Below are positions 9,835 through 46,918 of a stretch of 64,000 nucleotides of DNA, piece after piece. The DNA is taken from assembly GCA_025738555.1 (NCBI GenBank), contig JAOVFP010000017.1, forward strand, positions 2,790,001 to 2,854,000. The letters run 5' to 3'. Position numbers and translations under genes: made by a program. This DNA is from Cyathus striatus. Taxonomy: Eukaryota; Basidiomycota; Agaricomycetes; Agaricales; Nidulariaceae. The notes beneath the pieces were generated by a model. It was not told the origin of the DNA. It saw only the letters and a program-made list of their open reading frames with translations, and made no database searches. The stretch's first letter is position 1, and every line of letters starts with the position of its first letter.

Positions 9835-11988
9835 TTAAACTCCATCAAGATCTATATCTGCCCCTTCATATCCAGTCTGAAGAGGAATAGGTACCATAAA
9901 ATCTTCAGTCATGATTTCAGCACGTTCAGTATTGATTCCCTTTCCAGTTATGTGCATATGAGCATGACGGCGGCAAGGATCCTTTCCTTCAGCAATGGCC
10001 TCTTCATATAAATGGCGGTTATAGAAATTACGAAGCATTCCAAGTGATCCCAAATGATCAACTGTCAAACGAGATCGTTTGACACTCTGAACTCTGCCCA
10101 AATTGGAAAAGAAGCACTCCACTTCTGCAGCATGTGGAACTATGGCCATGATCTTGAGAGCAAATGTCCGAATTGGGTGAAATCCAATGTTGACAGATGT
10201 CCACCATGCCTTCGTGTCCGCTTTTCCCCCAGTGAAAGGTGACTCTTCACTTGCATATGCTTGGATATCCCTCAAAAGCTGCTCTGTATGTGCCCGTGAC
10301 CATTCCCACTTTTCCACTATGATGAGTGCAATATTGAATGCATCCTTCAATGTCCTAGAATGTACTGATGATGATAGGGCTAATTTTCGACATAGTGGGT
10401 GAAGGAAGAGGGAAAGCCAATGAAGTTCTGTGTTCATGGTATGGAAATAGTGAGTTACAGTTTCTTTAGCATGTCAAAGGAACTGCTTGTCTTCAAACTC
10501 AGATTCTGGTAAGTTGTTGATCTCGCGATGAGCCCAGATTAACTGTATCATACAATCAGCCAGCGTCACATCCCGAGACTCTGTATCACCAATTAGGTCA
10601 ACAAGAGGCTTGCAAATGCGAATGAACTCCTCATTGAGTTGCCACCGGCCAAGCTCGAGAACACAAGATATAACATTGCGCCATATAGGAGAGAGGCCAC
10701 CAATTGTATGTTGGGCTTCATCACGAGAGCAGAGCTCATAGAGAACCTTTTTGTGCTCCTGTATGCTAAGAGCCTGAAGGATAACAGCATAGAAGTGGGA
10801 CTCGGTATTCTTCTTCAATCCACGTGTTATATTATTCTCTTGTGCTAATTGTTCAAGCTGACCACCCCAATAGTGTGATGCATTGAAAAAGGTTATGATC
10901 TTTGTATTCTTTTTGATCAAGCTCTTCACACTTGCATAGCTTGATACCTTTCCTAGAATAGTGTTCACGCCATGTATAAAACACGGCAATGGCTGTTAGT
11001 TACCAAGGTGAGTTGATTATGAATAGCAATTCATCTAGCAGAATTACTTACTAAGATCCAAGGGTAGTGGCCTTCAGTAGTCCACTTTCGACGAAATGAT
11101 TGCATCGTTGTTGGGTTGTCAGTACAGACAGCAATAATAGACCATGCTTTCACAGCCTTTTGTCTCAAGGCTTCATCAGCAACAGTAACAAGGTTATCTG
11201 CTGTTGCTCGTATACCTGTAAGCTCCTTCAGTGCTAGAACGATTGGAAACTCTCCAACTTCAGACAGCAGGCATCCATATAAACTGCGCTTCATGCTATC
11301 CTCCCAACCATCCATCAAGTACGTCAAATTATCCCTCTTCTTTAGCCTCTCCATGTTGTCTTCATAGGCTCTTCCTTCTTCTGCTGGAAGATACTTCATT
11401 GTGAGAACGAAGCGAGAAGGTGGTGAATAACATGGGCGTATATTTCCCACCCATTTACGAAAGAAGGGGCTGTCGGCTTGCTTGAAAGGTATATTCCCAT
11501 GAATAAACCACCTGTAAATTTACTCCATATCAGACCTATCACCTCAATGCATGCAGGCCATCAGTAACTCACTTTATAAGATGGGTATTTGCTCTGTCCT
11601 CCTCCTTCTGTGTAAGTGCCCGATCCACAAAGCTTTGCATACCGCTAATAATAGTAACAGCATTCCTGGCATCGAGCTTGTGCTTCTTATGGGGATGCGC
11701 TTCCTCATCTGCAATGACTTCAGGCTCGGAGTCCGATAATTCTATTATAGCCCCTCCACCACGAGAAACCAGATGTTGATTGGCTTCCTTTTGCACCAGC
11801 TCAGGTACTTTAGAGCATTGTAGGCCATTAGCGAGGTGTATGGAGCATCTTCCATTGCAGTGAACTAGTTCTTTCAAGCAGTAGTTACAAACAACTGTCC
11901 ATCATTTTGTACTAGGATTACACTCCTTCTTTGTAAAATGGTTGTTGATAAATGTGTCCACAGGTCTTCCTCCCTTGTTTTTTCCCAT
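9835..11988 (-). pseudogene. hAT transposase, inactivated
   Basis: Read on the minus strand from ATG at 11988. A BED-type zinc finger (WTVVCNYC...HLANGLQC) comes first, then a DUF659-like region (DGWEDSMKRSLYG), a central helical region, and the hAT C-terminal dimerisation domain (AWWTSV...AAEVECFFSNLGRVQSVKRSRL). Two clean introns are visible: 11512-11572 (GTGAGT...TTTACAG) and 10993-11051 (GTAAGT...CTAACAG). In-frame TGA codons at 11904-11902 (in the BED finger) and 10476-10474 break it, and both could be CGA arginine before a C-to-T change. A TAA at 9837-9835 may be the true stop, or another break, since the frame stays open to 9592. The gene is probably dead, though related copies may be active. 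Confidence 0.85.
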
Positions 11989-14384: not shown

Positions 14385-15745
14385 GGTTATCAGCAGAAGC
14401 TGTATCGGATATTCTTTCAAAGGAGGTTCATATGCGCAGTAATGCTTTACCATCTAAGAGCACTGTCGGGGCGTATCGACGAGCACCAGGAGACGGTTCC
14501 ATCGTGAGGCTGGTTCCTGTGCTTCTTCCCAAGGCCGAGGAGAGAAATTCTCCAACACGATCGATGGACGGACTCGTCGTTATTGTTGGAATGGGTAGCA
14601 TAGGTCAAGCTCTGGCCAGCTACTTGGCTGGTTCAGGATGTAGGACCATCGTCTTCATGGGAAGACGGAGTGCTGGCGATAATGAAGCAAGCATTACTTC
14701 CTTTGCTTTTGGTATCCAGCCAACATTGATGTCGTCGTGCTAAGATTACACAAGGCTTGCAAAGCTTAAGATCAAGTCATCCTTCCGTCACCCTGGAGTA
14801 TGTTCAGACAGATGTCACCGACATGAAGAGCCTTCGCTCTTCGATAAACGCAATAGTCAGCCGCTTTAGCGATGTGAAACATGTCGTATACACAGCAGCA
14901 GTCATCCGTGACGCTACGATTTTGAATGTGTCCAATGACGAATTTGCGAGCGTCCTCGATTCTAAGGCTGTGGGGGCTTGGAATATGCACCTCATCAGTC
15001 AGGAGATGAAGTGGAATCTGGATACGTTTGTTCTGCTCAGTAGCATAAGGTCAGTTTTTGAAGGTAATTCTCGCGTTCGACTGCTTACCGTATACTAGCG
15101 TACCATTAGGAAAAGAAGGTCAGGTAGCATACGTTGCAGGTAATTCGTTTCTCGACTCGCTAGCAGCCTATAGGAAGAGTATCGGACTTCCCGGAATGTC
15201 GCTTCAACTTGGAGCCCGGGAATCCAAGGTCATTGAAAATGATAACTTTCCGCAGACGCATTTGCAGATCATGAACCACGAGGAAGGGATACCCTTAGTA
15301 CTGCAGTCCCTTTCTGAAAATGACCCCGTCCAAGTCATAGTGAATTGGGATGCCGAGAAAATGGCGCAGATACCTGCGTATGGAAGCGATGCAATGTTCC
15401 GCGAACTTTGGTTGAATGTCGCAAGTAAAGAGCGTGTGGTGCAAAAGACGTACTCCAGAACAGAGGTATCTGAAAACATTGTGCGAGCTGTGAAGGATGT
15501 GCTTGAGATCAAGGGGAGTGATCCATTTGGTACGTTGTTCGGTAGTTCGTGTCTCTGTTGAAAGCTGATGACTTTCAGATCCGGAGGAATCTCTCATTTC
15601 ATGTGGGATGGACTCGATATCGTTTGCGCAGATGCGAGGGAGTGTGCTGCAGAGATCGGGTATTGAGATTCCAGTGCAATATCTCTCGGAGACTTTTTCT
15701 ATCAACAAGATCGTGGAGGATGTTTGTAAAGCACATACGGACTAA
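14385..15745 (+). pseudogene. Truncated KR-ACP copy of the polyketide synthase
   Basis: This matches the last part of the complete gene (about 25945-27313) in both sequence and exon layout. It carries the ketoreductase nucleotide-binding loop (VGMGSIGQALASYLAGSG), the KR core with FVLLSSI and GQVAYVAGN (Tyr-x3-Asn), and a C-terminal acyl carrier domain (LISCGMDSISFAQMRG, with the phosphopantetheine serine in DSIS). It ends at a TAA in the same place as the full gene's stop. Introns are kept at about 14670-14745, 15049-15098 and 15530-15580. Homology stops abruptly at about 14385: no A, KS, AT or DH is present. It is either the tail of a lost tandem synthase or a partial duplication. ATG at 14432 could in principle start a free-standing KR-ACP protein. 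Confidence 0.75.
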
Positions 15746-16793: not shown

Positions 16794-17777
16794 CTACAGA
16801 GCCTTCCTTCCAAAGCATACCACCCACTCATACGTGCATTGCAAGTCCTCGTATTCCTTCACAACCCCGTCCATCATTTTATCGAACTCCTCCCTTGATT
16901 TCAAGAGATCCCCAGCCACGTCAAATATCTTAGGCCTCAACGCGTCCATTATGCGAAGCTGACTCTGCTGCTGCATAACACCTTGCTCCCCGCCCCATTT
17001 TCCAATCGGACAACTACAAACTACCATCTGGACATCCTCAAAGCCCGCTTCACGCATCATAGATTCCAACCGCTGGCCACAATCCAGCTGGAATCCCATC
17101 CTGGCGACGACTTTCACTCCCAACTCCCAACACTGGTCATTGGCCGGTCCTCCGCCCCACTTTGCGAATTCGCAAAGCTCTACCCATCCTCCTGGCTTCG
17201 TGACTCGATGAAGCTCTTTCAGCGCCAGAGGCCACTCTTCACGTCGAAGGCCCATAACCAGCAGACGCTGATGGACGACCGAGAATCTGTTCGTCCACTC
17301 GGACGGAAGAGCTAGGACCGAGTGAACAGAGAACTTGACGTTCTCTGGCCTTGATTCCTCTGCGGGAAAGAGGCGTGGTTCTATATCGAAGCCCTCTAGC
17401 TGCACGCCCTCGGGGACGCCTTTAGCTAGCTCAAGAAGCCAGATGCCTGGAAATATGGGTTAGGCATCACCTTGTATTTCTTGGGGTAACTAATACCTGT
17501 TCCTGTGCAAGCATCCAGCACTTCGTCGCTGTCCTTTAGGGACACTGGAGCTAACAGTATTCTTCCCCCGAAGGTGCGTTTCAAAAACTCATGCTGGTCA
17601 GTGAGCCTGCAACATTGAACATATTGGCTTAGATCTACATATCTTGCTGTACGACTAAACATACCTCAATCGTTCTTCTTCATCGGCTGGAAGGGCATAA
17701 GTGGCCCCTGGATAGGAATGATATGTCCTTGTCGTCGGCGATTTGGCATCTTGAGGAGCCGACTCTGATTCAAGCAT
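16794..17777 (-). CDS. SAM-dependent methyltransferase, LaeA-like (MT-A)
   Basis: Three exons on the minus strand (17777-17665, 17606-17497, 17446-16794) give 291 residues in frame, with 58- and 50-bp GT-AG introns. The N-terminal signature YHSYPGATYALPADEEERLR is followed by LTDQHEFLKRTFGG, then motif I (VLDACTGTGIW), an acidic post-I segment (GFDIEPR), and VTKPGGWVELCEF. These mark a class I SAM methyltransferase of the fungal LaeA-like/Methyltransf_23 type. The second intron falls inside motif I, as in all paralogues here. The start is the ATG 5' of LESESAPQ. It is transcribed away from the synthase at 18949 with 1171 bp between start codons. It is the most diverged member of the family, and no break is seen. 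The substrate is unknown. Confidence 0.85.
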
Positions 17778-18948: not shown

Positions 18949-21900
18949 ATGGGCACATTACTCGAACTCTTCTTAAATCTCGCGTCTGACCCAGCAACAT
19001 CTGGGCGTACAGCGGTTGAATGCTGCGACGACTGTTGGACATACGATGAGCTGCATTCAGTCACCTCTGTTCTTGCCGCAGAGCTCTTCGAGACCTATGG
19101 TGCTAGACCCACCGTTGCAGTTATTTCAGAGAACCATCCTTATTATATTGCGTTGATATTGGCCGTATGGAAGCTTGGAGGGGCGGTGGCCCCACTCGAT
19201 TGCCACGCACCGTCCCATCTCATGAAAGCTATGCTGCAAAGTATATCTCCTACATTTACTGCTATTCCCCAAATGGACGTGAAAAATATTAAACTAGCTC
19301 AAGGTTGGCATTGAGTTCCTTATCCTTCGTTATATACGTATGTCTGACGTTTTTTCCTGGAAGATATCAATATTCGCGTCCACGTCCTTGGAGATGTAGA
19401 AAGTACAATCTCATCTCTGACAACACACATCCTTAATCACAAGTCCAAATATTCATCCCTTTTTATCGATCCAAGTACTTGTACACTAAGGCCTGAGGAT
19501 GTAGCCATATACCTTCATACTTCATCAGCAACTTCAACCACAAATCTCAAGTGTGTTCCTATGACACATGAGTTGCTCATCTCAGATGGCCGTGGCCAGC
19601 GGGACTGGTTCCAACGAAACTTATCGATGGAGCCCATGTATCCTATTCGCATGCTTGGCTGGTCTCCGTTTAGTCATGCCATCGGCATATCTGTGGACCT
19701 CGTTCCGTCCATTCTTCTTACTGGCGGATGCTACATATTTGCACTGACGCCACCAGGATACGCCTCGCAAGATCATGCTCCATACGATGTTCCGAAAGCC
19801 ATCTTAGAAGCCATTTTAGTGCATGAGCCGGATGTCTTTGCCGCCGTTCCATGGATTTTGGATGGGATCATGCATGCGTATAACGCCGAACATGATCCCT
19901 CAAGGCGTATTCGTATAATCTCAGCTTTTAAGAAATTTAAATATTATATTGCTTCCGGGGCGGCTACTCCACAAGAGACTGCCGACTGGGCGAGGGAACA
20001 GGGGCTTCCAATCATTATAGGTATCGGAATGACGGAAACTGGAGGTACTAAAGTTCACTCTGGTTTTAACACGCCATGTCTTAACGATTTTTTAGGCATC
20101 ATGTTCCATTCCTTTGCTCAGGATGTGATCGGAGGCTTTCGCATTGGCGATAGCTGCGTACGAGATGCTGTGTACACACTTGTTGATGAAGACGGAGTTA
20201 CCTCTGATCAGGGTCGGTTTTCACTTTCTTGAGTATAATTCTTATACTAACGACGTACACAGAAGGCGAGCTTTATATTAGCAGTAAATATATTGCTAAG
20301 GGATATTTCAAATATGAGAGCTCTTCTTTTACGGAAGATGATCACGGTATAATCACTTTCCAGACGGGTGACATATATTGCTACGGATCCAGCCCAGATC
20401 GTATCATATGGAAGGGAAGAAAAGATGATTTCATTCAGGTACGTCTGGATGTTATTACCGTCGAAATTTAGATAGCTGATATCTTGCAAATAGTTCAAGT
20501 CAGGGGAGAGTCTCGACCCCCGACCCATCGAGCAAACGTTAAACGGATGTGATGCCATTGCACTTTCCTGTGTAGTGGGAAATATATTTTTGTCGGGACC
20601 AGCAGATTTCACCTGTGCCATCTTGCAACTTACAAGCGAAGCTCTTCGGAACCATCGTTCTGCTAAATTGCAGATATCCAAGGTCCTAGCTTCGATAAAT
20701 GGCAGCCTCCCGCCGCCTCTGCGCATATCGTGGTCTAGAATTCTTCTTCTGCCATCAGGGCAAGCTATTCCATATACGAAGAAAGGAATGGTGTTCCGTA
20801 AAAAGCTACAATCCTTGTTTGGCGATCAGCTGGAAAAACAAGTTCTCGGTTATATTGATACGGAAGAACCAAAAGTCACTCGGGTAACACGCACGCAAAA
20901 CTTCGTATCAGACGTCGTTCTTGATGCGGTTTCTGGTATCCTTGGAATCGAACTAAACGACTTAAGTGACAATTTGGAGTCATCATTTGCGGAGGTTCGT
21001 GGTCTTGTCTACTCGACTTTTTTACTATAACACATTTTCTTTCAGTTAGGAATGGATTCTACAATGGCAATTAAAATTGTTAATAAAATTAATCAAGCGC
21101 TTGACCTGACGTTGCCTCCGAATACTTGTCACATTTACCTTGATATTGCATCTCTGACCAAATTCCTGTGCGAGAAACTTTCGATAAACTTCAATCAAAG
21201 CTCCATGCAGACCCCAGTCATCAAGCAACAAGTTGCTCCCATGCACGAGCCAATCGTAATAGTTGGGAGAGCTCTCCGTCTTCCTGGAGATATAAATGAC
21301 TCAGCTTCCTTCTGGCAAGCTTTAGTTGACAGACGCACCGATATATTGACCTCCACGCCGGAAGACCGTTGGGATCACAAAAGCTTCGTGAACGACTCTC
21401 CTGGCCAAATTACATTCTCAAAATCTGGATTTGTTGACATTGCGAGCTTTGATAACGCTTTCTTCGGTATACCTGGGTCAGAAGCATTATTTATTTCACC
21501 CGCGACGCGACTAGCGCTCGAAGCCTCTTTTGAGGCGCTTGAAAATGCAAACATAGCGCTTTCAACAATTAAAGGATCGGACATGGGTGTGTTTGTCGCA
21601 ACTGGCTTGGATACTCAATATGGCGAACTATTGTTCCAGGACAGAGGATACGAAGGTAGAATTCAACTAGACAATTGGTGCCATCATACTAATGTATGTT
21701 TAGCTTATAGCCGGTTTTATGGAACAGGTGTAATCCCCAGCACAACCTGCGGACGCATAAGCTAGTGAGTGGTGTAAATAATGAAAGGTGCTGCATGCTG
21801 AGCAATTTCGTAGTCTTCTTGACATTCACGGGCCATCTACCACTGTGGAGACTGCCTGTAGCGGAGGCATGGTCGCTTTAGATCAAGGTAAGTATAAACG

Positions 21901-24900
21901 AACAAACATGTATTTTATGCAACTTATAGGATTTATTTAATAGCTGTCAGACATCTTCAATCGGGTAGAGGAGAGTCTGCCATTGTCACCGCAGTAAATA
22001 CCCATACGATGCCAGGAATGTTCGGGTTCGTACGAAATGTCCATCTTCTTGCCGACTTTCTTAAGGCGCACATATAGTTTCTTATCTGCTCAGCAAATGA
22101 CATCAAAGAACTCTCGGAGTGCAACATTCACCAACGAAGCTGATGGGTCAGTTGACATCATAAATTCTCGCACCACGATATTGATTGTCTTTACAGTTAT
22201 GCAACATCTGAAGGAGTTGTTTCTCTCATTGTAAAGACACAAAGTGCGGCTGAGCGAGATGGCGATACCATCATAGGAGTGATTAGATCTACGGATACGA
22301 GGCATAACGGGAGAACACAAGGGCTTGTCGCTCCAAGTATTTCAGCGCAGGTTGCCCTTCAGCGGTCAGTTCTTCGGTTGGCTTCATTAGAGCCAAGTGA
22401 TATCAAGTACGTGTTTTCTTGAGCTTTAACGGTATAAACAGCCAAACTTACCTTTATCCCCAGCTTCATGGAAACGCATGGAACTGGTATGTACTGCTTC
22501 GACTGATTGCTTGAACATAACTTTAATAGTACGATCCTCTGCGTATAGGGACCTCTCTTGGTGATTTGATGGAGATTCAAGCAATTAATGAAGTATTCCA
22601 GAATTCGCACACACCTTTGCATCCGCTAGTTCTTGGAGCCGCCAAGTCTTGCATTGGTCACACCGAAACAGCATCTGGCCTTGTGGGAATCGTAAAGACG
22701 CTGGAATCATTCGCAAGAAATGCCATACCAGGTCTTACTCATCTTAGTGAACACAACATGAATCCAGCAATAGATACTAATGCTGTCCCTTTACACATTC
22801 CTTGTCGCACATATGCCTTGGAGCCACGGTTGGGTATCCCGCATCGTGCTCTTGTTGTGTAAGTCTTATACCGTGATGCACAATATGTTACTGTCTAATG
22901 ATTTGCGTTAGAGCTTACGGATTTGCTGGAACGATCTCAGCCACGGTTATCGAAGCGCCAGGTTCGAAGTCAGAGGCTGGAGTGAGTAGGAAGGCCATTC
23001 CAGATGGGAAGCCACTACTATTTGTTGTCAGCGCCAAATCCGAGCATGCACTCATTTCATACATCAAGAAATACATTTCATTCTGTCGGTCAGCTCCGGA
23101 GGCACTCTTTCAATCAGTCTGCTACACGAGTTGTGTTGGCAGAGAACATTATCGTCATCGTTTTACTTGTGTCGCTGACAGTCTTTCTGAGCTTAGTCGG
23201 AAGCTGGAGGACAGACTCCACAACCTGAGCGGATATGCTGGCATTTCAAATCCACGAGTTCTTTTCGGCTTTCCTGGCCAAGGCACTCACTTTAATGGAA
23301 TGGCCCGTGACTTAGCCAATGCGTATTCAGGATTCCGAGCTATCTTAACGGAGTACACCAAGTCGGCATCGAAGCACACAGACCTTCCAATTCTTGCGCT
23401 TCTACTGGGAACTGACGAATCTGTAGAAGGTACTGATCAGAGTGAAGCAGCTCAGATATGTATCTACGTTTTCCAATGCGCTGTAACAGCGTGGCTTAAA
23501 GATTTAGGGTTGCGACCAAGTGCTGTCTTAGGGACTAGTCTTGGTGAAATTTCTGCCGCGGGTATGTGCATTTTGATCCACCGGACCATAGCCTCGCTTG
23601 ACACTTATCGCAGTTACTGCCGGAGCTCTTCAATATGCAGATGGGTTACGGCTGGTGATTGCAAGAGCACACACTTTGAAATCAAATCCTCCATCTTCTG
23701 GCGCAATGGTCGCTATTGCTGCTCCTGAGCAAGTGATTCTGGGCTACATTGATTCCCTTCACGTAGAAGACCGAGTTGTTCTCGCAGTCTCCAACGGTGA
23801 AGAAAGCCATGTCATCTCAGGATTTTCTGACGCTGTGGAATTGGTTTATCAAACTGCGAAGATGGAAGGGCGGCGTTGCGCGAAGCTGAAGGTTCATCAA
23901 GGTGAGAATGAGGACATGCGAACATGCGCGATATTCTTACCTTGTATAGGTTTTCACAGTCCCAGCATTGAGCCAGGACTGGTGCCGCTTGGGCAATGGC
24001 TCTTGGCTAATAAGTCAAGCTTTGGCCCACTGAAAACACCCTTTTATTCAACCTCCACCACCGAGGTGATTCCTTCTGGGGAGTGCCTACCTCCTGAGTA
24101 TTGGGTGCGTTTTGCTATTCCCTGTAAGAAGTAATATAAGTACTAAAATGAATGCAGATTGCGCATGCACGGAACCCCGTTAAGTTTTGGCAGACTGCAA
24201 GAAAGCTTAACCAGGATGATACAGTGAACATCTTCTTAGACGTTGGACCTCAGCCAATACTATGGTCTCATATGCAAGGTCTTCACAGTACTAAAATGGC
24301 GACATATGCCACCACTGGCAAGCAGGGGTCCAATCAAGAGTACGCATTTCTTCAAGCAATTGCGCAGCTTTTTGAGAGAAACGTCTTCGTTGATCTGAAG
24401 AAGCTATACCATGAACGTGGTCACTTCTCCAATACCTCAATCCCCACGTATCCTTTCCAGCATCACCGACACTATCCCAATTTTGTCCCATCTCTCAACC
24501 AAATGCAAGCGGAGCGGTATACCGCTCAAACTATACCGCTACTTTCCGTTAATCAGGCACTCCTTGATCTCCTTTACGACCATAGAATAGAGGGAAGACG
24601 GGTCCTTCCTGGAATTGCATTTGCAGATCTCGCAGCGAAAGGCATAGAAGACTGCGAACGCCGAATAGGAAGTATTCGCTTCCATCAGCCTCTGGTACTG
24701 GAAAAAACAGGGTCCGCTATTCAGGCAGAAATACAAAAAGATGGGACATTCATCATATATTATGGTGTAGAAAAAAGCAAGATATGTTCTGGATCCTTGG
24801 TTTATCGCAAGCCTGCAAGGCCTAGAAAAGCTATTGAAATGGAGGCGCCACCTCTCCGGGTCTTGAACAGAGAGGCAGTATATGCTTCCTTCGAGGATCA

Positions 24901-27313
24901 AATTTTATTCGGGCCTGCTTTCCAGAACATTAAGAACATCTCCGTATGGCCCAATTATGTACAGGCTGCCATACATGTTCAAACGTCTTTAAATACACAA
25001 CTAGATCGTATTCGCAAGCTGGATCCTTGTCTGCATATGTTCGGCGCGATCTTACAGTTCATGGACATTCCAGATCACATTCACAAAGATGGTTTATACT
25101 TGCCTACAGCTTTACAAGGGTTCATATTACATTCAGAAACTATCCCTTCCGAGTTTTACTGTAGGTATTATCTTCCTGCTGAAACGGGAGAGAACTACAC
25201 CACTAGCTCCGTAAGCTTTGATGTCTTTTCACTGTCTGGTGACCTATTAATATCTTGCGAGTAAGTGTGGTTCTATGACTAATGTACGTTTGTGTTTTCT
25301 GACGAAATTTCATTAGAAAATATTTAGTGGCACGGTTACCGAAAGGTGTTGCCATTCAAACACCTGCTATGGACAAGCTGTCCAGGAAATGGATGCAGAA
25401 TACATGGCGACGGGAAGACGTTTTACAGGGACTCGAGTCTCCTAGTTCGTTTGGAAGAAGTGAAACTGTGGCATACTTCAGCGATTCAATCAACAATGCG
25501 GTATTGTCTGCCTTCGTTACGTCTTCCAATGAAGTTTTTATTGGAGAACTTGCGGTTTCAGATAGTATTCGCCATATAAAAACTGATTCTACTAAGCTCA
25601 CAGGCGTTATTGGCTCCCCAACACTATCGGATAAAACACTTACCGACGAACTAGAGGGAAAAACGATCTCTATCGTTTTGGATGTCACTCGTTATCATGC
25701 TCCTGGATCGGATATGTATGTATCACTGTGGAAGCATGCAATGCGGCTCATGAAGTTCGCATTAAGTGGGAAAGTCGATCTTTCTGCATTTGTTGTGGTG
25801 TCGAGCCTTTCATTGCCAACTGGTCCAGCTTATTGTTTGCGTCAGCCGCCGGGAATAGGCGCCGTTTTACAGGGCATGCTTAGAGTTTACCGCCGTGAAT
25901 CTGGACTTTCTACTGATACCGTTTGGGGTGTCGACCTCCCAGACCAGTTAACACAAGAAGCAATCACGGAGATTCTTTCAAAGGAGATACATATGCACAA
26001 CCAAACTTCAACAACCAAGAGTACAATTGCAGCCTATAGGCGACCACTAGGGTGCCACGAAGACGATCCCATAGTGAGGATGGTTCCAGTGCTTCTACCC
26101 AAGGCTGAGGAGGGAAATTCCCCAACAATGGCAATTGAAGGACTTGCTGTTATCGTTGGGATGGGTAGTATAGGACATGCCCTAGCTAGGTACTTGGCCG
26201 GTTCAGGTTGTATGACCATTGTCTTCCTGGGGAGACGCAGGGGTGATGATAACGAGGCGAGCATAACTCCTTTAGATTACATATTAACCATCTAACGTTG
26301 CTGTCGCGTCCAGATTATACAGGGGTTGCAACGCCTGATATCAAGCTGTCCTTCCGCCACCATGGAGTATGTTCAGGCAGATGTCACAGACATAGTGAGC
26401 CTCCGGGTCTCGATAGAAGCGATAGTCAGCCGCTTCGGCGAGGTGAAACATGTCGTATATACGGCGGGAGTCATCCGTGACGCTACGATTTCGACTGTGA
26501 CCAATGACGAATTTGCAAGTGTTCTCGATTCGAAGGCCATGGGTGCTTGGAGTTTGCACCTCATCAGTCAGGAAATGAAGCTGAACCTGGATACGTTTGT
26601 TCTGCTCAGTAGTATAAGGTGAGTTGGTAAGGGAAATCTTTGAATTCTACTGCTCACCGTACTCCAGCGTACCATTAGGGAATGCAGGTCAGGTTGCATA
26701 CGTCGCAGGCAATGCGTTCCTCGACTCTTTAGCAGCCCATAGGAGGAGTATTGGACTTCCCGGAACGTCGCTTCAACTTGGAGCCTGGGAATCTAAGGTT
26801 ATCGAGAACGTTGACCTTTCACAGACAGACTTGAATGTTATGAGCCATGCAGAAGGGATACCCCTCGTATTAAAGGCCATATTTGAAAGTGACCCCGTCC
26901 AAGTTATAGTGAATTGGAACGCAGAGAAATTGGCACGGGGCCCTGCATATGCAAGCGATGCTATGTTCCGGGAACTAAGACTGACCAACCCAGGCAAAGT
27001 ACATGTCATCCAAAAGACATATTCTAAAAAGGAGATCTCTGAGATTATTCTGAGCACTGTGAAGGGTGTACTTGAGATCAGGGAGAATGACCCATTCGGT
27101 TCGTCTGATGCTTCGTAGTCTTAATCGAATGCTAATCGACTATCAGATCCGGAGGAATCTCTCGTTTCCTGTGGGATGGACTCAATATCATTTGCGCAAA
27201 TGCGTGGGAACGTGCTTCAGAGACTAGGTATCGAGATACCTGTGCGCTACCTTTCAAACTCCTTCTCCGTGAGCAAAATGATGTCAGATGTTTGCAAAGG
27301 ACGCTTTGTATGA
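18949..27313 (+). CDS. Hybrid polyketide synthase, A-ACP-KS-AT-DH-KR-ACP
   Basis: A large multi-intron gene from ATG at 18949 to TGA at 27311-27313. Domains in order: adenylation/acyl-ligase (A3-like LHTSSATSTTNLKCVPMTHE, A5-like GIGMTETGG, A7/A8-like GELYISS and FQTGDIY...GRKDDF, KKGMVFRKK) to about 20870; carrier 1 with LGMDST near 21050; ketosynthase from EPIVIVGRALRLPG (21250) with the active Cys in VETACSGGM (TGT 21857-21859), METHGTGT and KSCIGHTETASGL; acyltransferase with GTSLGE (Ser codon 23537-23539) and GFHSPS; dehydratase with LYDHRIEGRRVLPG at about 24570 and a LDPCLH second motif; ketoreductase with VGMGSIGHALARYLAGSG and GQVAYVAGN; carrier 2 with SCGMDSISFAQ. No ER or C-methyltransferase was seen. 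The A domain would activate a starter acid and load it on carrier 1 for extension and partial reduction. Exon joins near 26240-26320 are uncertain: a TAA at 26293-26295 must lie in an intron or be a break. Confidence 0.85.
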
Positions 27314-29669: not shown

Positions 29670-32600
29670 ATGAGCAAAACAGAAATCCAGTCTTGGATCT
29701 CCAGTGCAAGAACTGGTGAAAACGGTGATGCAGATGCTTCGAATGGTGAATCAGTCTGGCAGAGAGATCGCGTCCTGAGCGACTGGCCAAACTCGATGGA
29801 TTACGCGCAAAAGACACTATTGGTTTCGCAGACGAGGATACGTGTACAGTTTTTGCGAGATGAACTTTTCTCTCTGGCTAAGCACGGAGGTACGCAGTAA
29901 TTCCATCTTCAGTCTTCAAATATATATGCTAATACTTTATTTTGACTTTTATAGACTTGACGCTTTCCCAGATAATGGATGTATTCAAACTTTTAACCTT
30001 CACATACCCACGTTACGCGGACGATGAATCAAGACGAGCAGTCGAAGCAGTCGGTATGGAGTTGGTGAGGAGAGATGAACTGCGAGGAACTCCCGAAGGT
30101 ACACAGGATGAGACAAAGATGGGAGTCGCCGAGCAGATCTTTGGCTGGCTAGCTAACGAGGTTGGAAGATTAGCAAAACGTGGGTCGGCAACGTGAGTAG
30201 ACGCATCAATCCTTTCTTCTGTGTTCTTGTCATTCTAAACCACATTTAGCGCACATGCGCCTGCAGATCTCTTTGTCCTCCTCAGCTGGTCATGCGGATT
30301 GTACACCATCTGTGTCAAGTATAACCCCGACTTCCCTTCTTCCAACTCGTGGAAGATGTTGGTTGGGTCGATGGCTATCCTTTTAGACATGCTGAACGAA
30401 TCAAGCACTGCTAAACCATCTCTGAAGAAGGGTGGCCTTGTGAAGGTCCGTAGGGCATTGATATCAGTGAGCATTTCGCTATTTTTTGTCCGCGTTATGC
30501 ATTGATCAAGTGCTCCCCGTAGGCCGGAGACAAAATACCAGCTGTGATCTCTGCCTTGCTTGGTATAGCAAAGACGACCCAGACCCCACTAAGGATGATT
30601 TCGCTTATTGGTGTCTCAATCAGCGTGCTGATCAGACTAAAGAATGTTGAAGAGACTCCAGTTGCTCGTCTACCCCAGGATTTGAAGGTATTTTGGATAT
30701 TTGGAGTATTGCGATCAATGCTGATAAACCACAGACCGAAATCGTGAAGATATACTCGAGTACTGTGCTCATGTCTAAAACTGCTGTCCCAGAGCACGTT
30801 TTGGTACGTCTATCTATTATATCCGATTATTAGAACGTTTCTTAAAATACGTTCAGACATCGCTGGACGACTTCATCGCGACATTCGTAAAAGATGACGA
30901 CTTTACCCAAACTATCCTTCCTACAATGGAGAAGGCGTTGCTCAGATCTCCCGAGTATTCCCTTGCAAGTATGCACACTCCCTATCTTCCCTCTATACCG
31001 GAGACTAAGTATCGCACTTCGCCCAGCCGTTACCCAATTCTTCGCCGCCTACCCACATGTACTCAGCAATGACTCCTTCAAGCGCATCCTCACCCAGGTC
31101 ATCAGTAGCTCCAAATCTAGTAATACTACCGTGCGCACCAATTCGATCCACCTATTTCAAGTACTCCTCTCGGCCGGTGAAAGAGGGAACATCGAGGAGC
31201 TCTCAAATCTCGCAGTGACTGAGTTATTTGTCCTTCCCAAGACTGGCAAAACCACAGGGCCCGATCAGCGCGTCGCACTGTATTCCATGCTTCGATATAT
31301 TCGCCCCTCTACTGGTGTTTCTCCCGTTATCCTCCAGAGTATAGTACCTCTGTTGGCGAAGGAAGCTCATGAACTCTCCATTATCACCCTTGTTGGATCT
31401 TTAACTCCGCATCTCGCTATCTTGCTGAAAGAGTCTTCAGTCCCTAACGACACTATCCAGCTCATTGCTAAAGAACTTAATAGCCCCAAGCCTGCTGTGC
31501 GCCGAGCTTTTTCTGGCCTTGTGGGCGCTGTACTCTCCGACGATGGCGTATTAAGCACCGAAAAGGGAGCAGCTTTCGCGAGGAGCGTTGTACCCGCCCT
31601 TGAGAATTGCTTGAAAACAATCACTGCGAACCCACTGAACGCGAGTGGTGGTCCTTTCGAGGGTTATGTAGCCGTATCGGTGTTCCTTGGCCCTCTAGCG
31701 AACTCTGGAAAGTTTGGTACGTATTCGATGACTACTTTAGATTGGAAATACTTAACGTTGCTTTAGCTGATCTAATTGCGAAAAATCCTACGATAAACGC
31801 GATAACAACCAGCACAGCTAAACAACCGTTTTTGTTTTGGGACAAGGTTTATCAGAAAGTCACAGAAGCGGAGGACGAGAAGTGGCTGCTTAATGCCTGC
31901 GAAGCCTCTCTCGTCTACTTCAAATCTGACCTAACAAAAAATGAGACTCTTCGGTAGATATTCTTACAAACAAGAGATTGCGTCGTATCTGATAATCTTG
32001 CAGTGCACAGCTTGGTCTCGTATTTGTGCATCTAGCTCTGGACGGACATTCTCCCGACATTCGAAAGGATGTATACAAAGTCCTCGAGGCTTCTACAGCA
32101 AGAGTACCTCAGCTTACAAATCTCGTCATGTGTGATGCATTGAATGTATTCCTTGCTCGTGGACCTCCTACCCCGAAAGTATCCAGCCCGGAAGATCAAC
32201 CACAGCCCTGGAATAAATACTCGCGTCTCGCGGCCTTGCTTCTGAGTGCAGTTAACTTCGAGGAGGGCGTTGACCAAGCCACGAGGGAAGATTTAGCGGT
32301 GAATCTTGTTATTATTGGCCATCACCAACTTATATGTAAGTACCTCACAACGGAACTGATGTTAGCACTGCTAAATAACTTCGATTCATACAGTCAATCA
32401 ATCACGACTAACTTGGATCGAAGTTTGCCAGAAGGCCGGAGTTGACCCACACGATCTCGTAACAAAGCATCTGGATAAACTTTTCCAGTTGATCTTAGGC
32501 GCTTCTACAGTAGAGTCAAAGGTATGTTGATTTCTGAAGCTTCATGGTATGATAACTGACATTAGCGATGACAGTTTGGTTTCGCCGATGCGAGTTACCG

Positions 32601-35600
32601 TGCAGTCGGAACTCTCGCTTTTGTCGCGCCAGAGGTTGTCTTACCGCGCGTCTTGGAACAGCTTCGACTGGACCTTAACGTAGAAACCCTCAAATCGCTC
32701 ACTGAGCTAGAGTTAGCGGTGTGGATGACACCTGAAGGCACTGCTTACGTCGATGGTATACTTTTTTCGTTCGTTTCCAGAGACCTTTATTTATCCTCGA
32801 ATTAGTGCTATCGGCAAATAACAGCGAAGTCCGAACTGCCAAAGGAAAGGACGCCGAGATCGCCAAGTGGGAGGAAGATATTCGCAAATCGATTGCCAAC
32901 AAGAAGGCCGCCGGGACTAAAACACTTACAAAGCAGCAACAAGCTCTCGTTCAGGCTCAGCTTGAGAAGGAGGGCAAGATTCGTCACCGGGTAACGGGAA
33001 TCAAGGCCAACATCGAACGAGGGCTTAGTTTTATTCGCAGTCTCGTGTCGACGGATGCACACGACCTCAGGAACTACGTTGCTACCATCAGCGCACTGCT
33101 GCTAGGCGGCGTTCTTTCTCATGGTGGTGCTCTTGTAGGAGAAGATGCATTCAATACATATATCGTAGGTTCTGTTACTTTTCCGCTTCCGCCATAGAAA
33201 CTGATGTGAGAATAGGAAATTGCAAAATGCTGCTCTGATCGCCTAGGAACTTTCAGCACGTGGATAGGCATTGCTTCTTTACGATGTCTCAATATCCAGG
33301 CCATCCCCGAAGAACTCCAGGCCGAACCGCTAAACAGTATGCTGCATTTAATGCAAAGTCCACATCTCTAATAACACTACACATTGTCAGGCCTAATTGT
33401 TCGCGTCCTATACCGACTACAATTCTTGTCTGAGCAAGCACCGTTCGACGCACCGACGTTCTCTTATAGTTTCCCATTGCTGGAGCAAATAGTCCTTCAT
33501 GGCGGAATTGCTTCTGAGGACAGCGAGGAAATTTTGGAACAAGTAGCATTATCATTGGAAATTATTAAATTCCATTGTGGAGAGTGTGAGTTTCTTTCAC
33601 TTTTTTCCACTGACTCCAAGCTTATTTTGTGCTTAATCTTTCAGTCGCCGATCCCGCCTTCCCAAGAGTAGAGACCATGAAAACGCTCATCCATCTCATT
33701 CGTAATCAACCGAAGCTCAGCAAGGATGCTTCATCTGCACTCGTCGACCTTGGCCAAGCTATTCATGCATCTGCTAGTCGGGAGGAGACGAATGTTCTTC
33801 TCCATGGTGTCCTTTTGCAAGAGTCCTACGCAAGGAATTCATGTCTACAGGCCATTCAGGTTAGCGACGTTAATGGCGTAGTTGAGCGGTGTTCTGAATC
33901 CTGTATATTTTAGCCATTTGATTTGACTGATCTTGACTGGTCGCCTGAATTATGGGTAGCTTGCCATGACGATGACGAGCAAAATGCTCGTCTTGCGCGT
34001 CACGCGTGGGAGGACAACGGTTTGGACATACCTGAATCGTTTTTAGATGAAATCCTTCCGTATCTTGGTAAAGTTGTTATATCCTTGATCTGGCTAGTTC
34101 TGATGTTAATTTGTTTCAGGACATGACAACGCATACGTCCGCTCAAGTTCAGCCTCTTCTATTGCAGGTGCATTGGATCAATGGCCACAGGCAATACAAA
34201 ACGTGGTGGTGCGCCTGCAAGACTACTACCGCGACAAGGTAGAGTGGTTCTTCTGTTATTCAGCACCTAGCTCATTAGTCCCTCCCAGGCTAAAATTCTT
34301 GCTCCTGAATTCGATGAATATGTAAGCTTCAGTCATTGACACTGCGAGATCATTCTGACAATAGCATAACTTAGGGCATGGTCATTGCTTCCAGTTTAGA
34401 TCGGTCAGACCCTTGGTCTGCGCGCCTAGCTACAGCGCGTGCGTTTGAACTCTCTGCTCCCTACTTCACCGAGGAGGTACTAGAACCGTTCTTCAAGTTC
34501 TTGATCCAAGATCAAGCCTTGGGAGATCGAGAGGCAGAAGTTCGCCGCGGAATGCTTTTGGCCGGCACTACCGTTATTGATATTCATGGAGACAAACGAT
34601 TAGCTGGTCTAATTTCAATATTCGAGGAACACCTCGGAAAGACAACGCCTGCCACCGAGGCCGAAGACTACATCAAGGAAGCAGTTGTTATTTTGTTCGG
34701 GCGTGTTGCTCGCCATTTGCAGCCTACCGATCCGCGAATCCCCAAGATCGTGGATAGGCTCGTAGAGGCACTGAGAACACCAGCTGAACAAGTGCAAATT
34801 GCTGTGTCTGAGTGCCTGGCACCGTTGGTGAAGTTGATGAAACCTCGGCTACCAGCTCTTGTGGGCAGTCTCTTCGACGATCTTTTCAACGCACCAAAAT
34901 ATGCTGCTAGACGTGGTGCTGCGTATGGACTTTCCGGTGTCTTGAAGGGGACAGGTATTGCGGGAATGAAGGAATTTGAAGTTATACGGAGACTTCGTGA
35001 AGCTGCAGAGGAAAAGAAGCACTATGAACCACGTCAGGGGGTGATGTTTGCCTTGGAAACGTTATCGAATGGCCTCGGACGATTGTTTGAACCGTACATC
35101 ACGTATGCTTTGCCGTTGCTTTTAACTTCGTTCGGTGATGCAACAACTGATGTCCGTGAGGCCACCCAAGATGCTGCTCGTGTTATTATGGGTAATCTCT
35201 CCGGTTACGGTGTAAAACTGATGCTGCCCACGTTGTTGGAAGGATTAGATGAGAAGCAATGGAGAACAAAGAAAGGTTCTATCGAGCTGTTGGGTATGAT
35301 GGCATACTGTTCTCCCCGACAACTCTCTATCTCGTTACCCATCGTTATACCCCGCCTGACTGGAGTTCTTACGGACTCGCATGCCCAGGTACGAGCTGCT
35401 GCTAACAAGAGTTTGAAACAATTCGGTGAGGTTATCAGCAACCCTGAAATCCAGTCGCTTGTTCCTATTCTCCTCAAGGCATTAGTAGATCCTGGAAAGA
35501 CTTCGAATGCTTTGTCTTCTTTACTAAAAACATCTTTCATGCATTATATTGATCATTCCTCTTTGGCATTGGTGAAGTCTATTTATCTGTTTGCGTTGTT

Positions 35601-38600
35601 TGCGTTACTGAATGTTGCTGTAGGTAATTCCAATCATAGAGCGTGGCTTGCGTGAACGTGGTGCGGATACAAAGAAGAAGGCTGCGCAGATTGTCGGAAA
35701 TTTAGCATCACTTACAGAATCGAAGGACTTTGTGCCTTACCTTGACGAGCTACTGCCTATGGTGCATCAAGTCCTTGTGGACCCTGTACCAGAGGCCCGA
35801 GCTACTGCTGCCAAAGCACTTGGTACACTTGTTGAAAGATTAGGTGAAATCCACTTCCCCGATCTTGTACCTGGGCTCTTGAGAACTCTCAAGACCGATA
35901 CGTCTGGCGTTGACAGGCAAGGTGCCGCTCAAGGTCTCAGTGAAGTTCTTTCAGGACTGGGAATGGAAAGATTAGAAGGATTGCTGCCAGATATCATTGC
36001 GAATGCTCGTTCACCCCGGCCTACAGTGCGCGAAGGATTTATGTCCTTGTTAGTGTACCTTCCAGCTACATTTGGTACACGGTTCCAGCCGCATCTACCG
36101 AAAATTATACCTCCGATCTTGGGAGGGCTATCGGATAACGAAGAATATGTACGAGAGGCAGCAATGCGAGCTGGAAGGATGGTTGTCACCAATTATTCCA
36201 GCAAAGCTATTGATCTATTGCTCCCCGAACTCGAACAAGGAATGTTCGATCCAGGCTGGCGTATTCGGGTGAGTAAAGTTTCCATTTCACAACCATCCTC
36301 AGTGATCTTACAATTTATTAGCAATCGTCAATCACCTTGGTCGGTGAACTCCTTTTCAAAGTTTCTGGCGTGTCCGGAAAAGCATCAGACCTGGAAGAAG
36401 AGGAAGTTGCTGCGGAGTCTACTGTCATTGAATCATCTCGCCGCGCACTCGTTGAGGTTCTTGGTCCAGAACGCCGTGATCGTATTTTGGCAGCTCTTTA
36501 TCTCGTTCGTCAAGACGGAGTCGTTGTAGTTCGACAAGCTTCTATCCAAATCTGGAAAGCCCTGGTTCATAACACACCACGCACCGGTATGTCCTTGTTT
36601 TCATCCTTGTGTTTTTATTATCATTCATATCCTTGACCAGTGCGCGAGATACTTCCCGAACTTGTTAATCAGATCATAAAGTTGATATCGAGCGACGAAC
36701 CGGAACAAAATGAGACAGCAGGTAGGACGGTTGGCGAGCTTTGCCGCAAGTTTGGTGAAAGAATATTGAGTGAAATAATACCCATTATGAAGACAAAATC
36801 AACTTCGACGGATGTCAGGACCCGGGCCGGTGTCTGCGTTACATTAAGTGAGATTATGTGCGTAACTTATCACTCCAGAATGAGACTACCTTTTCTAAAC
36901 CACATTTTTAGGCAAAATGCCACGGAAGGTCAACGAGAAGACCACGAGGATGATATCATATCTATGGTCCGAGTTTCTCTTGTAGACGATGAACCCAGCG
37001 TTCGCGCTGCGGCTGCGCAAGCGTTCGATGTTCTTCAAGAAGAACTTGGAGTCAAAGCCATCGACCAGACGATACCTACACTCTTGGAGGCTCTCCGACA
37101 ACCTGGAAAAGGTTCCGGAACTGCTCTTCAAGCTCTCCGAGAAGTCATGGCAGTTCGTGCTTCTACAGTATTCCCTGTTTTGATACCGACACTCACCGCA
37201 ATACCGATGACGGCCTTCAACGCCCGTGCTCTAGCATCTCTTATCACAGTGGCTGGGACTGCCCTAAGTAGACGTGTGTCTGTCATTCTCAGTGCTCTAA
37301 TAAAGGTATCAGAGGATGATCTTAGTGAGGACTTGCGTCCTGCTGTAGACGAAGCTGTTCACGCCCTTCTCTCCTCCATTGGCGATGGTGAAGGACTCAA
37401 CACGTTAATGATGATGCTGATGGGATGGTAAGGGATTTTTTGCATCGACATATTATTGTTTTATTCACTCATCATGTGTAGGGCAAAGCACGATAATCCA
37501 CTCCGTCGTGTTAGCGCTTGTAATTTCTTCGCGCAGTTCTGTGAAGTAACAGAACTCGACACCTCTTTATACCGAATTGACTGGATTCGCCAATTGACAA
37601 CGCTCTTGGACGATCCTCAAGTACCAGTCCACACAGCCGCCTGGAACGCTTTCGACATCTTCGTCAGGTCTATACCGAAGGACGAACTTGAACCGCTGGT
37701 CGTGCCTCTGCGCCGTAGCATTGAATCATCTGGCGCGCCAGGTCAGACTGTTCCAGGTTTCAGCCTTCCAAAAGGTGTTGCGCCAATAGTCCCGATCATC
37801 ATTGCTGGTCTTACCACTGGTAGCAATGAACAACGCGAGCAAGCGGCGTACGCCATTGGTGACTTGGTAGAACGTACTGAAGAGAGCGCGATTAAACCGT
37901 ATGTTGTCCAGTTGACCGGTCCACTCATTAGGGTTGCTACGCAGGCGACAACATATCCTCCTTCCGTGAAGACAGCTATCCTAAGTGCATTGATATCGAT
38001 GCTTGAGTCTATCCCAACATTTGTCAAACCTTTCTTCCCTCAGCTGCAGCGTACCTTCGTTAAGAGTGCAACTGATCCCGCAAGTAATGCTGTTAGAATT
38101 CGTGCTGCGCAAGCACTTGGAGTGCTAATGCAAAATCAACCGCGTGTTGATCCTGTCATTACGGAGCTTATAACAGGTGTAAAGAGCAACGAAGAGTCCA
38201 TTGCAAGCAGTCTTGTTGTGGCGTTAGCTCGAGTTACAAAGAGTGGATCCAAAAATATAGGTGAAAAGGCCAGGGAGTCATGCGTAGAACTTGTGTCTGA
38301 CGCGTTCCGGGAAACACATGACGGTATGTTCTCCGTCAATTGTTATTTATCTGTTTGTTGATGAGCTTTGTCCAGATAACTATTGTCAAGCTATTGGGGA
38401 GCTGGTGGCCTCTCTGTCTGATCATCCCGAGCTTTTACAGCCTATTGTTAGGTGCGTCCATTCCCTACTATGTCATGTACTCGTTTTGATCATATCTTTT
38501 ATAAGCTCTCATCTTGTGGCTGGGACTCCTCCTTCCGTCCTTTCATCTCATCTCATACTAGCAGTTCTGACGCCTGACGAAGATCTTCACGACCAACCCA

Positions 38601-39272: not shown

Positions 39273-40270
39273 ATGTCAGACACCGACACAGATAGTTCAT
39301 TTGAGGCAACAACAAAGAAACTAGATCACCTAACAAGACCTCGGCATTCGTATGTTGGTGCAGCGTACACTCTCCCCGCTGACGACGCAGAGAAAAAAAG
39401 GTATGGAGTTCAATTTGTCAATGTCAGACGTGCTAATGGTACTTTCCAGGCTCATTACCCAACATCACCTATTGAAACGCGTCTTCGAAGGTAACCTTTT
39501 AGCACCCGTAATATTGAAGGGTGACGACAAGGTGCTGGATTCCTGCACCGGGACTGGTATGTAGTTCCAAACCATTATACTCATCATAAATCACAAACAC
39601 TAATGTTAAACTTAAAGCAATTTGGCTCCTTGAGCTGGCGAAAGAAGTGCCAGCGTCCGTGTTACTGCATGGATTTGACATCGAAACACGTCAATTTCCA
39701 GCTATAAATTCTCTGCCTAGTAATTTGGAACTTTATCAGCATTCAGTACTCTCTCTTCCGCTTGAATGGACGGATAGATTCACTGTAGTCCATCAACGGC
39801 TAGTGGTAGATGGACTTCGGCGCACGGAATGGTCACGAGCTCTAAAGGAACTACATCGAGTCACAAAACCTGGAGGATGGCTGGAGCTTTGTGAAACACC
39901 TGACTGGAGTGCAGGACCTGTCAACCAGAAGTGGAAAGAATTACTGCGAGAAGTGTACAACGATCTCGGGCTCGTCCTGGACGGGGGCAAAGATATCGAG
40001 TGTATGATGCGCAATGCGGGGTTCATAGATTTGCAAGTTGTAGAACAAAACGTGGCTCTAGGAGGTTGGGGCGGAAAGGATGGAAAGATGGAAAGTGACA
40101 ATTTAATGGAGGTTTGGAAGGGGATGGGGCGGGTGGTTTTAGAAGCGGGTAAAAATTGCATAAGAAGTGAAAAAGAGCTAGATGGATGGCTTCGGGAGCT
40201 GGAGAGGGAGTACGAAGAGTTTCAGGGAACAATCAACTGGGTAATTTGTTTTGGAAGGAAAGCTTCATAG
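39273..40270 (+). CDS. SAM-dependent methyltransferase (MT-B)
   Basis: Three exons (39273-39400, 39450-39556, 39618-40270) give 295 residues in frame with 49- and 61-bp introns. It has the family N-terminus HSYVGAAYTLPADDAEKKR, then LITQHHLLKRVFEG, motif I written VLDSCTGTAIW, GFDIETRQF, and HRVTKPGGWLELCETPDW. In motif I the usual last Gly is Ala, as in MT-C, and an Asp-Ser replaces Asp-Ala; the SAM-contacting Asp and first Gly are kept. It ends GRKAS. It heads the B-C-D array, 517 bp after GCN1, and appears intact. Substrate unknown; LaeA-like proteins are often linked to secondary metabolism, but that link is only inference here. Confidence 0.85.
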
Positions 40271-40590
40271 CGTGTTTAATGGGTTGTACATCATGAACGC
40301 AGCACCATGAAGCATTACATATGTAACCATGATCTTTGAAGCGAGTAAAATGGTGGATGGATCCCGTTAATCGTGGCTCTTCAATAGATGACTTAATATG
40401 ATAGCTTGTGGTGAGGATCATGTTAACAAATATTTTAAAAATAGATGCGAGCGAACAACATGTCAAAGGTTGTTCACATGGGCATAAGTACTTAAACCTG
40501 CGACTCGAGAGGCATCTGTAGTCCAGAAAAAGGTACCAAGCTATATATTGGAATCAAGAATTTCAAAGCTTCGCCGAGATGCCTATGAAG

Positions 40591-40599
40591 TATAAATAA
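40591..40599 (+). promoter_or_regulatory. TATA box of MT-C
   Basis: TATAAATAA stands 57 bp before the MT-C ATG (40648). The same box with flanking ACGGGGAAGGACCTTG occurs at 48390-48398, 45 bp before the MT-F ATG, so the promoter was duplicated with the gene. Confidence 0.6.
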
Positions 40600-40647
40600 C
40601 GGGGAAGGACCTTGAACTATGGTTGCCGAAGCAACTTGAAGGACACC

Positions 40648-41589: not shown

Positions 41590-41939
41590 TCTGACATCCA
41601 TGCCCAATGTACAATGTGTCCTGTGCTGAGCGAAATATAGAACTGCAAATGGCATAAGCGTATTACGATCCTGTGCAAAAGTTCAACAAAAATCGGATTT
41701 TACACCTGATCAGTGGGGTATTTCCGCAATTTCTTCCACGGCATAAAGGTCGTGGAAAACCCTTAAGTATTGTGGAGATACTTAAACACATCGAATGTTC
41801 ACATGCACGATTAACATGCCAGTGGGATAAGTTATAGTCTATGAATAGTCCTGCCGACCGCTACACATACGGCCCGACAGTAAAATGTTCGTATAAATGT
41901 ATGCAGCAACGCTAAGGGTTGAGTAGTTAGACATTTGCA

Positions 41940-46858: not shown

Positions 46859-46918
46859 TTTGTATATATTATGTGCCAGACCCTATAGGAAGTTTCATCG
46901 AATTAAAGTTCAAAGTAC
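46859..46918 (-). repeat. Inner 60-bp inverted repeat, right arm
   Basis: Perfect 60/60 reverse complement of 45755-45814. Its last four bases overlap the start of the outer right TIR. Confidence 0.75.

What the first reader, a model, noticed from the sequence alone, without database searches (positions are those of the whole stretch)
18949..27313. Polyketide synthase with an N-terminal adenylation-carrier loading unit plus DH and KR
The domain order A-ACP-KS-AT-DH-KR-ACP is not the usual fungal reducing PKS order, which starts at KS. From memory, an A-ACP-KS-AT start is known from mushroom hispidin synthases, but the added DH and KR set this one apart. An activated starter acid, perhaps aromatic, would be extended and partly reduced to an unsaturated chain. 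All catalytic residues checked are present, and the absence of ER would keep double bonds in the product.
Basis: partly seen in the sequence, partly recalled or inferred. Interest (0 to 1): 0.75.

Follow-up and report, generated by a model that had tools for sequence, protein, structure and literature searches.

The report
Mushroom acid-loading polyketide synthase gene
A bird's nest fungus carries a complete gene for a large enzyme that activates a free organic acid and lengthens it into a partly reduced chain; enzymes of this kind are already described in mushrooms, so the find is ordinary, though its own starter acid and product are unknown.

Summary
One gene, window 18949-27313 (+), 21 exons, 2435 aa, encodes A-ACP-KS-AT-DH-KR-ACP; it is 96.5% identical, without internal gaps, to Cyathus striatus BDQ17DRAFT_1344564. 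The claim that DH+KR set it apart fails: such hispidin-synthase orthologues are published for non-luminous Agaricales (PMC9866795), Cyathus olla has three A-T-KS-AT-DH-KR-ACP genes (PMC11186289), and FnsA, with this order plus TE, makes naringenin from p-coumarate or p-hydroxybenzoate (PMC9606254). On a KS-AT tree the gene sits in a small clade with Hypsizygus, Hysterangium and a Mycena, outside the hispidin-synthase clade. By motif alignment its adenylation pocket has Ile where 11 of 11 readable hispidin synthases have Glu, and no readable row of 62 has Asp235. I infer a carboxylic-acid starter, probably aromatic but not caffeate, extended iteratively with malonyl units and partly reduced. 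Extras: a second full-looking copy and many 3' fragments within about 120 kb, several beside a co-duplicated methyltransferase, and a probable frameshift in the other haplotype's allele. New member of a known kind.

The parts
18949..27313 (+). PKS gene, 21 exons, 2435 aa, A-ACP-KS-AT-DH-KR-ACP
   Evidence: splice model; Pfam; 96.5% identical to P0001
19000..20838 (+). adenylation domain (AMP-binding 19000-20309; C-terminal subdomain 20424-20838; presumed catalytic Lys540 at 20782)
20914..21126 (+). loading ACP (Ser615 at 21058)
21247..22745 (+). ketosynthase (Cys849, His984, His1024)
23264..24355 (+). acyltransferase (Ser1299, His1405; GTSLG motif)
24563..25347 (+). dehydratase (His1596, Asp1743)
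26149..26791 (+). ketoreductase (Ser2235, Tyr2248, Asn2252)
27147..27313 (+). last exon with C-terminal ACP serine 2393 (27182) and stop
26257..26313 (+). GC-AG intron 18; the protein junction GDDNE-I(I/V)QGLQ is as in P0001, and the donor is GC in the other haplotype too
14387..15733 (+). truncated tandem copy: 3' part only (KR and C-terminal ACP, residues about 2045-2444 of P0001), in several tblastn pieces
16797..17459 (-). methyltransferase ORF between truncated and full PKS copies, divergent to the full copy; its family recurs beside PKS fragments of the array

Best explanation
The gene encodes an iterative, partially reducing type I polyketide synthase with its own acid-activating loading unit. 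The A domain adenylates a free carboxylic acid (not an alpha-amino acid; probably an aryl or arylacrylic acid, probably not caffeate) and passes it to the first ACP; KS and a malonyl-type AT extend it with malonyl units on the second ACP; KR and DH reduce and dehydrate some beta-keto groups; without ER the double bonds stay. The chain leaves without a thioesterase domain of its own, by lactonisation or by a separate enzyme. It belongs to the known basidiomycete family of DH-KR-bearing hispidin-synthase orthologues, in a sub-branch of its own. Shown here: gene structure, domains, residues, kinship, pocket differences by alignment. Inferred: starter, number of extensions, reduction pattern, release, product.
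For: Complete spliced frame colinear with P0001; Pfam order; key residues; ACP1 serine and KS start in one exon; 33 of the 120 listed relatives cover at least 97% of the query; KS-AT trees of 58 and 65 rows: window with P0001-P0005 (six rows, SH-aLRT 99 and 100), hispidin synthases a separate clade (10 rows, 12, both 100); no Asp at pocket position 235 in 62 of 62 readable rows, Ile at 299 against Glu in 11 of 11 readable hispidin synthases. Precedents: PMC9866795 (parts 1-3 of 4 read: full-length hsPKS with DH-KR gives dim light from caffeic, coumaric and ferulic acids, main product unknown) and PMC9606254 (parts 1-2 of 8 read: FnsA activates p-coumarate or p-hydroxybenzoate and adds three or four malonyl units).
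Against: No expression or product data. The pocket positions rest on motif-anchored alignment with recalled PheA/DhbE numbering, not on a structure; PDB hits to the A domain are weak (best E 2e-8). AT GTSLG departs from the commoner GHSLG (H in 41 of 54 rows), so AT activity could be altered, though N (8) and S (2) also occur there. Three non-HispS Mycena galopus rows also have Glu at 299, so that residue is not a strict mark. The other haplotype's allele carries a 2-base deletion at the intron 3/exon 4 junction that would shift the frame, so the gene may be dispensable.
Confidence: 0.85

Rival explanations
1. It is a hispidin (styrylpyrone) synthase in practice: it loads caffeic or coumaric acid, adds two malonyl units and releases a pyrone, with KR and DH idle.
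For: Same wider family; full-length hsPKS with DH-KR gave dim luminescence from caffeic, coumaric and ferulic acids (PMC9866795).
Against: Outside the hispidin-synthase clade; pocket AISAISGGI against VLM[CTA]EGGG[AT] in the 8 hispidin synthases that are readable and exact; DH and KR residues intact; two of the three tested DH-KR orthologues gave no light, and LC-MS found no hispidin from the full-length ones.
Confidence: 0.1
2. It is a dying or inactive copy: one survivor of a decaying tandem array, with an altered AT motif and a broken allele on the other haplotype.
For: Many fragments around it, several in broken frames; allele with a 2-base deletion; AT His to Thr.
Against: Frame, splice sites and the other key residues intact in the window copy; 25 codons differ silently against 20 with amino acid change between haplotypes, of 2434 compared, fewer replacements than I would expect without constraint (rough, no formal test); 96.5% identical full-length model in the C. 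striatus reference. The deletion could be an assembly error.
Confidence: 0.12
3. It works like FnsA in detail: benzoate-type starter, one reducing round that makes a cinnamoyl-type chain, then unreduced rounds and cyclisation to a flavonoid-like product.
For: Same domain order as FnsA without TE; FnsA takes one more malonyl unit on p-hydroxybenzoate than on p-coumarate (PMC9606254), which I read as KR-DH acting in that extra round.
Against: No TE; FnsA's sequence was not among the listed hits, so kinship was not tested; starter unknown.
Confidence: 0.2

Closest known systems
DH-KR-bearing hispidin-synthase orthologues (hsPKS, gcPKS, cgPKS; Palkina et al. 2023, PMC9866795)
   Same: AMP-binding, ACP, KS, AT, DH, KR, ACP in one protein; Agaricales
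   Different: The three named sequences were not in my set. The window's pocket (AISAISGGI) differs from [VI]ISGGGDGP, read in 12 of 21 rows of the largest DH-KR clade
Cyathus olla NRPS-like-PKSs g10529, g391, g6859 (PMC11186289)
   Same: Same genus, three genes with A-T-KS-AT-DH-KR-ACP
   Different: Sequences not fetched, orthology not tested; the passages I saw name no product for them
FnsA naringenin synthase, Pestalotiopsis fici (PMC9606254)
   Same: A-T-KS-AT-DH-KR-ACP, free aryl acid loading
   Different: Has a C-terminal TE; an ascomycete (recalled); sequence not compared
Hispidin synthase, Neonothopanus nambi (P0045)
   Same: A-ACP-KS-AT...ACP, A-domain core motifs
   Different: Lacks DH and KR (1678 aa); separate clade; Glu in pocket
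Inonotus IgPKS2 type (PMC12634532, passages) and Hymenochaetales rows P0039, P0122-P0128
   Same: AMP-ACP-KS-AT-DH-KR-ACP order
   Different: Extra C-terminal ACP in IgPKS2; separate deep branch in the tree as rooted

Membership tests
DH-KR-bearing hispidin-synthase orthologues | Single protein A-ACP-KS-AT-DH-KR-ACP | tested here: met
   (no transcript evidence)
DH-KR-bearing hispidin-synthase orthologues | KS-AT within the basidiomycete family that holds hispidin synthases | tested here: met
DH-KR-bearing hispidin-synthase orthologues | Key catalytic residues of all domains present | tested here: met
   AT GTSLG instead of GHSLG noted
DH-KR-bearing hispidin-synthase orthologues | Trace styrylpyrone-type light from phenolic acids (one of three tested members) | not testable with these tools
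   needs expression; literature
Hispidin synthase proper | No DH, no KR | tested here: not met
Hispidin synthase proper | Member of the hispidin-synthase clade | tested here: not met
   (12 rows, 100; window outside)
Hispidin synthase proper | Pocket with Glu at position 299 (motif alignment) | tested here: not met
   Ile in the window; Glu in 11 of 11 readable hispidin synthases
FnsA-type naringenin synthase | A-T-KS-AT-DH-KR-ACP followed by TE | tested here: not met
   order met, TE absent (protein ends after ACP2)
FnsA-type naringenin synthase | Activates p-coumarate or p-hydroxybenzoate | not testable with these tools
   needs an enzyme assay
Fungal highly reducing PKS | Starts with KS (recalled) | tested here: not met
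   A and ACP precede KS in one frame

The most novel reading that the evidence does not exclude
The branch of Cyathus, Hypsizygus, Hysterangium and Mycena sp. has changed its starter: it loads a benzoate- or cinnamate-like (or short alkyl) acid and uses KR-DH in a programmed first round, so that it builds its own arylacrylic chain. Copies A and B (pockets AISAISGGI and, from P0002, GMCGMAAGS) would make different members of a set of aromatic polyketides of bird's nest fungi, trimmed by the co-duplicated methyltransferase. Raspberry ketone, known from the bird's nest fungus Nidula niveo-tomentosa, would be one candidate product type.
Probability: 0.15. Interest if true: 0.5.

Novelty: new member of a known kind. 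Interest (0 to 1): 0.25.

Why it matters
It adds a distinct branch to the family that also holds hispidin synthases, the makers of the fungal luciferin precursor, with an adenylation pocket that by alignment is unlike that of either the hispidin synthases or the largest DH-KR clade. In the papers I read no main product of a basidiomycete DH-KR member is given, so a branch with a different predicted starter is a usable test case. The window by itself changes no accepted view.

Tried and rejected
Rejected: two separate genes (ACP1 serine and KS start share exon 6). Rejected: hispidin synthase proper. Doubted: that the partial DH-KR-ACP copies of the array are intact separate genes. In L030, L031 and L019 tblastn pieces overlap in different frames, so I read them as relics; but the KR-ACP part of the copy in L033 shows no clear break beyond intron places, and I made no splice model of any of them. 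The AT GTSLG motif was first taken as a possible sign of altered extender choice; relatives carry H, N, S, A or R at that column and I dropped it. A structure prediction was not run: the protein exceeds the size limit and it was unclear whether cut pieces are admitted. Rows: one search counts the window and 53 of the 120 proteins listed. The tree has these 54 rows plus P0090, P0099, P0101 and P0119. The tree drops P0044, P0052 and those four and adds 13 of the 120 listed. Against a neat split: seven rows outside the hispidin-synthase clade also have a gap at the KR tyrosine column (P0027, P0033, P0037, P0038, P0040, P0041, P0128; three of them also at the DH histidine column); I did not settle whether these are partial models, misalignment or real losses. 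In one search the bacterial row P0101 reads Asp at position 235; it is outside the family count.

Papers: searches listed none. In the listings I saw no paper that gives the product of a Cyathus enzyme of this kind; titles and abstract starts only, save the papers opened. PMC8911701 uses the word cyathusal ten times and was not opened. Of the four papers I opened one, where Nidula occurs once, in the reference list. PMC10923510 was searched for words only. Kotlobay et al. 2018 was not held. Most subscription papers are not in the library.
Full report
What is there. The window lies in a 107 Mb, 24-contig assembly of an unnamed fungus (G000:C17:2790001-2854000). The best relative of the gene product is BDQ17DRAFT_1344564 of Cyathus striatus (P0001), with 2349 of 2435 residues identical and no internal gap, so the source is C. 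striatus or near it. A copy on contig C23 is 98.9% identical over 9.9 kb, which fits two haplotypes of one dikaryon.

Gene model. I read exons by hand from the stop-to-stop frames, joined them and corrected one missed intron against P0001. The result has 21 exons and 20 introns of 48-62 bases, 19 GT-AG and one GC-AG (26257-26313). The protein junction at the GC-AG intron is as in P0001 (GDDNE-I(I/V)QGLQ), and all 20 splice-site pairs, the GC included, are the same in the C23 copy as aligned. Pfam on the draft gives AMP-binding, AMP-binding_C_3, PP-binding (two stretches), ketoacyl-synt N and C, KS-AT linkers, Acyl_transf_1, PKS_DH_N, PS-DH and KR, and no ER, methyltransferase or thioesterase family at E <= 0.001. 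Domain coordinates are in the parts table.

Key residues. The twelve residues that I looked up are there. Across window + P0001-P0053 the KS cysteine is C in 54 of 54 rows and the DH aspartate D in 42 of 42 rows with letters. The AT motif reads GTSLG in the window and GNSLG in P0001; at that column H stands in 41 of 54 rows, N in 8, S in 2, and T, A and R in one each.

Kinship. The homologue search scored 7988 candidates and found 380 at E <= 0.001; of the best 120 listed, 33 cover at least 97% of the query, all fungi by the names given. A KS-AT tree of 58 rows (LG+G4, quick) and one of 65 rows (LG+C20+F+G4, quick, rooted on Hymenochaetales) agree: the window falls with Cyathus P0001 and P0002, Hypsizygus P0004, Hysterangium P0005 and Mycena P0003 (99 and 100), while the hispidin synthases (10 and 12 rows, with Neonothopanus P0045) form another clade (100 in both). 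The 12 hispidin-synthase rows all have gaps at the DH histidine and KR tyrosine columns; so do three other rows (P0038, P0040, P0041), and four more lack the KR column alone. Seven of the eight Hymenochaetales rows, and P0036, have letters at both columns, so loss in the hispidin synthases is the simpler reading; the tree does not prove it. The two other bird's nest rows (Crucibulum, P0006 and P0008) lie elsewhere in the tree. Fourteen inner forks are weak, and quick trees overrate support for long rows.

Adenylation pocket. Aligned by motif to nine usual NRPS positions (numbering recalled), the window reads AISAISGGI, P0001 GISAISGGI, P0002 GMCGMAAGS, P0003 IMCGIASGV, P0004 IMGGIATGV; P0005 is unreadable. 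Of 12 hispidin synthases 8 read VLM[CTA]EGGG[AT]; P0042 reads IFMCEGGGT, P0149 ILMCEGGGT, and P0051 and P0053 are partly unreadable. In the largest DH-KR clade, 12 of 21 rows read [VI]ISGGGDGP. Position 235 is Asp in none of 62 readable rows (3 of 65 unreadable), which speaks against alpha-amino acids. Glu at 299 is in 11 of 11 readable hispidin synthases and in 3 of 49 readable others, all Mycena galopus. So caffeate is an unlikely starter here. An aryl or arylacrylic acid without the catechol is my guess from the family.

Mechanism. By analogy with FnsA (PMC9606254), which adenylates p-coumarate or p-hydroxybenzoate, loads it on T and adds three or four malonyl units, and with hsPKS (PMC9866795), I expect A to load a free acid on ACP1, KS-AT to extend it iteratively and KR-DH to act in some rounds. 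All of this is inferred for the window's enzyme; none of it was measured.

What is known already. [quoted passage not shown] cutting these domains out did not give hispidin, and one full-length enzyme of three gave dim light. PMC11186289 (passages) reports three A-T-KS-AT-DH-KR-ACP enzymes in Cyathus olla. PMC12634532 (passages) reports AMP-ACP-KS-AT-DH-KR-ACP-ACP in Inonotus. PMC9606254 (parts 1-2 of 8) counted 502 fungal NRPS-PKS hybrids, five with known function before FnsA. The architecture is therefore not new.

Array and neighbours. A second full-looking copy (B, best matched by P0002) lies at C17:2700955-2709283; I made no splice model of it. No B was seen on C23, but only 19 of 78 candidates were scored. 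Besides A and B I count, by my own grouping, 14 PKS pieces on the C17 stretches fetched, 13 of them within residues 1507-2425 of P0002, and five on the C23 stretches fetched. Several break into different frames. Methyltransferase ORFs of one family sit in the array at six places on C17 (one partial) and two on C23. Not fetched: C17 2719501-2719999 and 2753501-2754999, and C23 1887801-1910999, 1919501-1935499 and 1943001-1949499. The window's own truncated copy (14387-15733) ends about 1 kb from the methyltransferase at 16797-17459. On C23 the truncated copy reaches further upstream (to residue about 1432 of P0001).

Other haplotype. Of 2434 codons compared, 25 differ without and 20 with amino acid change; two codons at the intron 3/exon 4 junction were set aside because of a 2-base deletion, which would shift the frame unless another splice site is used.

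Verdict. Real, complete and correctly described, but a new member of a known kind.

Noticed in passing
G000:C17:2700955-2817313 and C23:1868490-1954349 (loci L017-L019, L030-L042): Tandem array: two full or full-looking PKS copies and many fragments, mostly the DH-KR-ACP end, several close to a divergent methyltransferase of one family; a truncated methyltransferase + DH-KR-ACP unit seems itself to have been amplified.
   Followed up: partly
L018 against window 20263-20267: Allele on C23 has a 2-base deletion at the intron 3/exon 4 junction; predicted frameshift or assembly error.
   Followed up: partly
window 39590-52650 (+): Seven places with methyltransferase ORFs or pieces, 43-71% identical to the one at 16797-17459; those at 40894 and 48681 are 94% identical to each other.
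   Followed up: partly
window 30891-38358 (+): Frames matching Gcn1_N and EF3/GCN1 HEAT repeats: a GCN1-like translational activator gene.
   Followed up: partly
window 2716-4959 (+) and 9838-10995 (-): Reverse transcriptase and RNase H frame of an LTR-type retroelement; two minus-strand frames at 9838-10995 look transposase-like to me but gave no Pfam family.
   Followed up: partly
window 52000-58000: Strong strand asymmetry (AT skew about -0.35 at 54-58 kb) with two overlapping minus-strand frames of 863 and 812 aa; the 863 aa frame has no Pfam family (the 812 aa frame was not searched), and no tandem repeats were found.
   Followed up: partly
G000:C17:3337298 / C23:1271914, C9:724550, C21:766514, C2:3058569: Other ketosynthase-domain genes of the genome; by tblastn only distant from this family.
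   Followed up: partly
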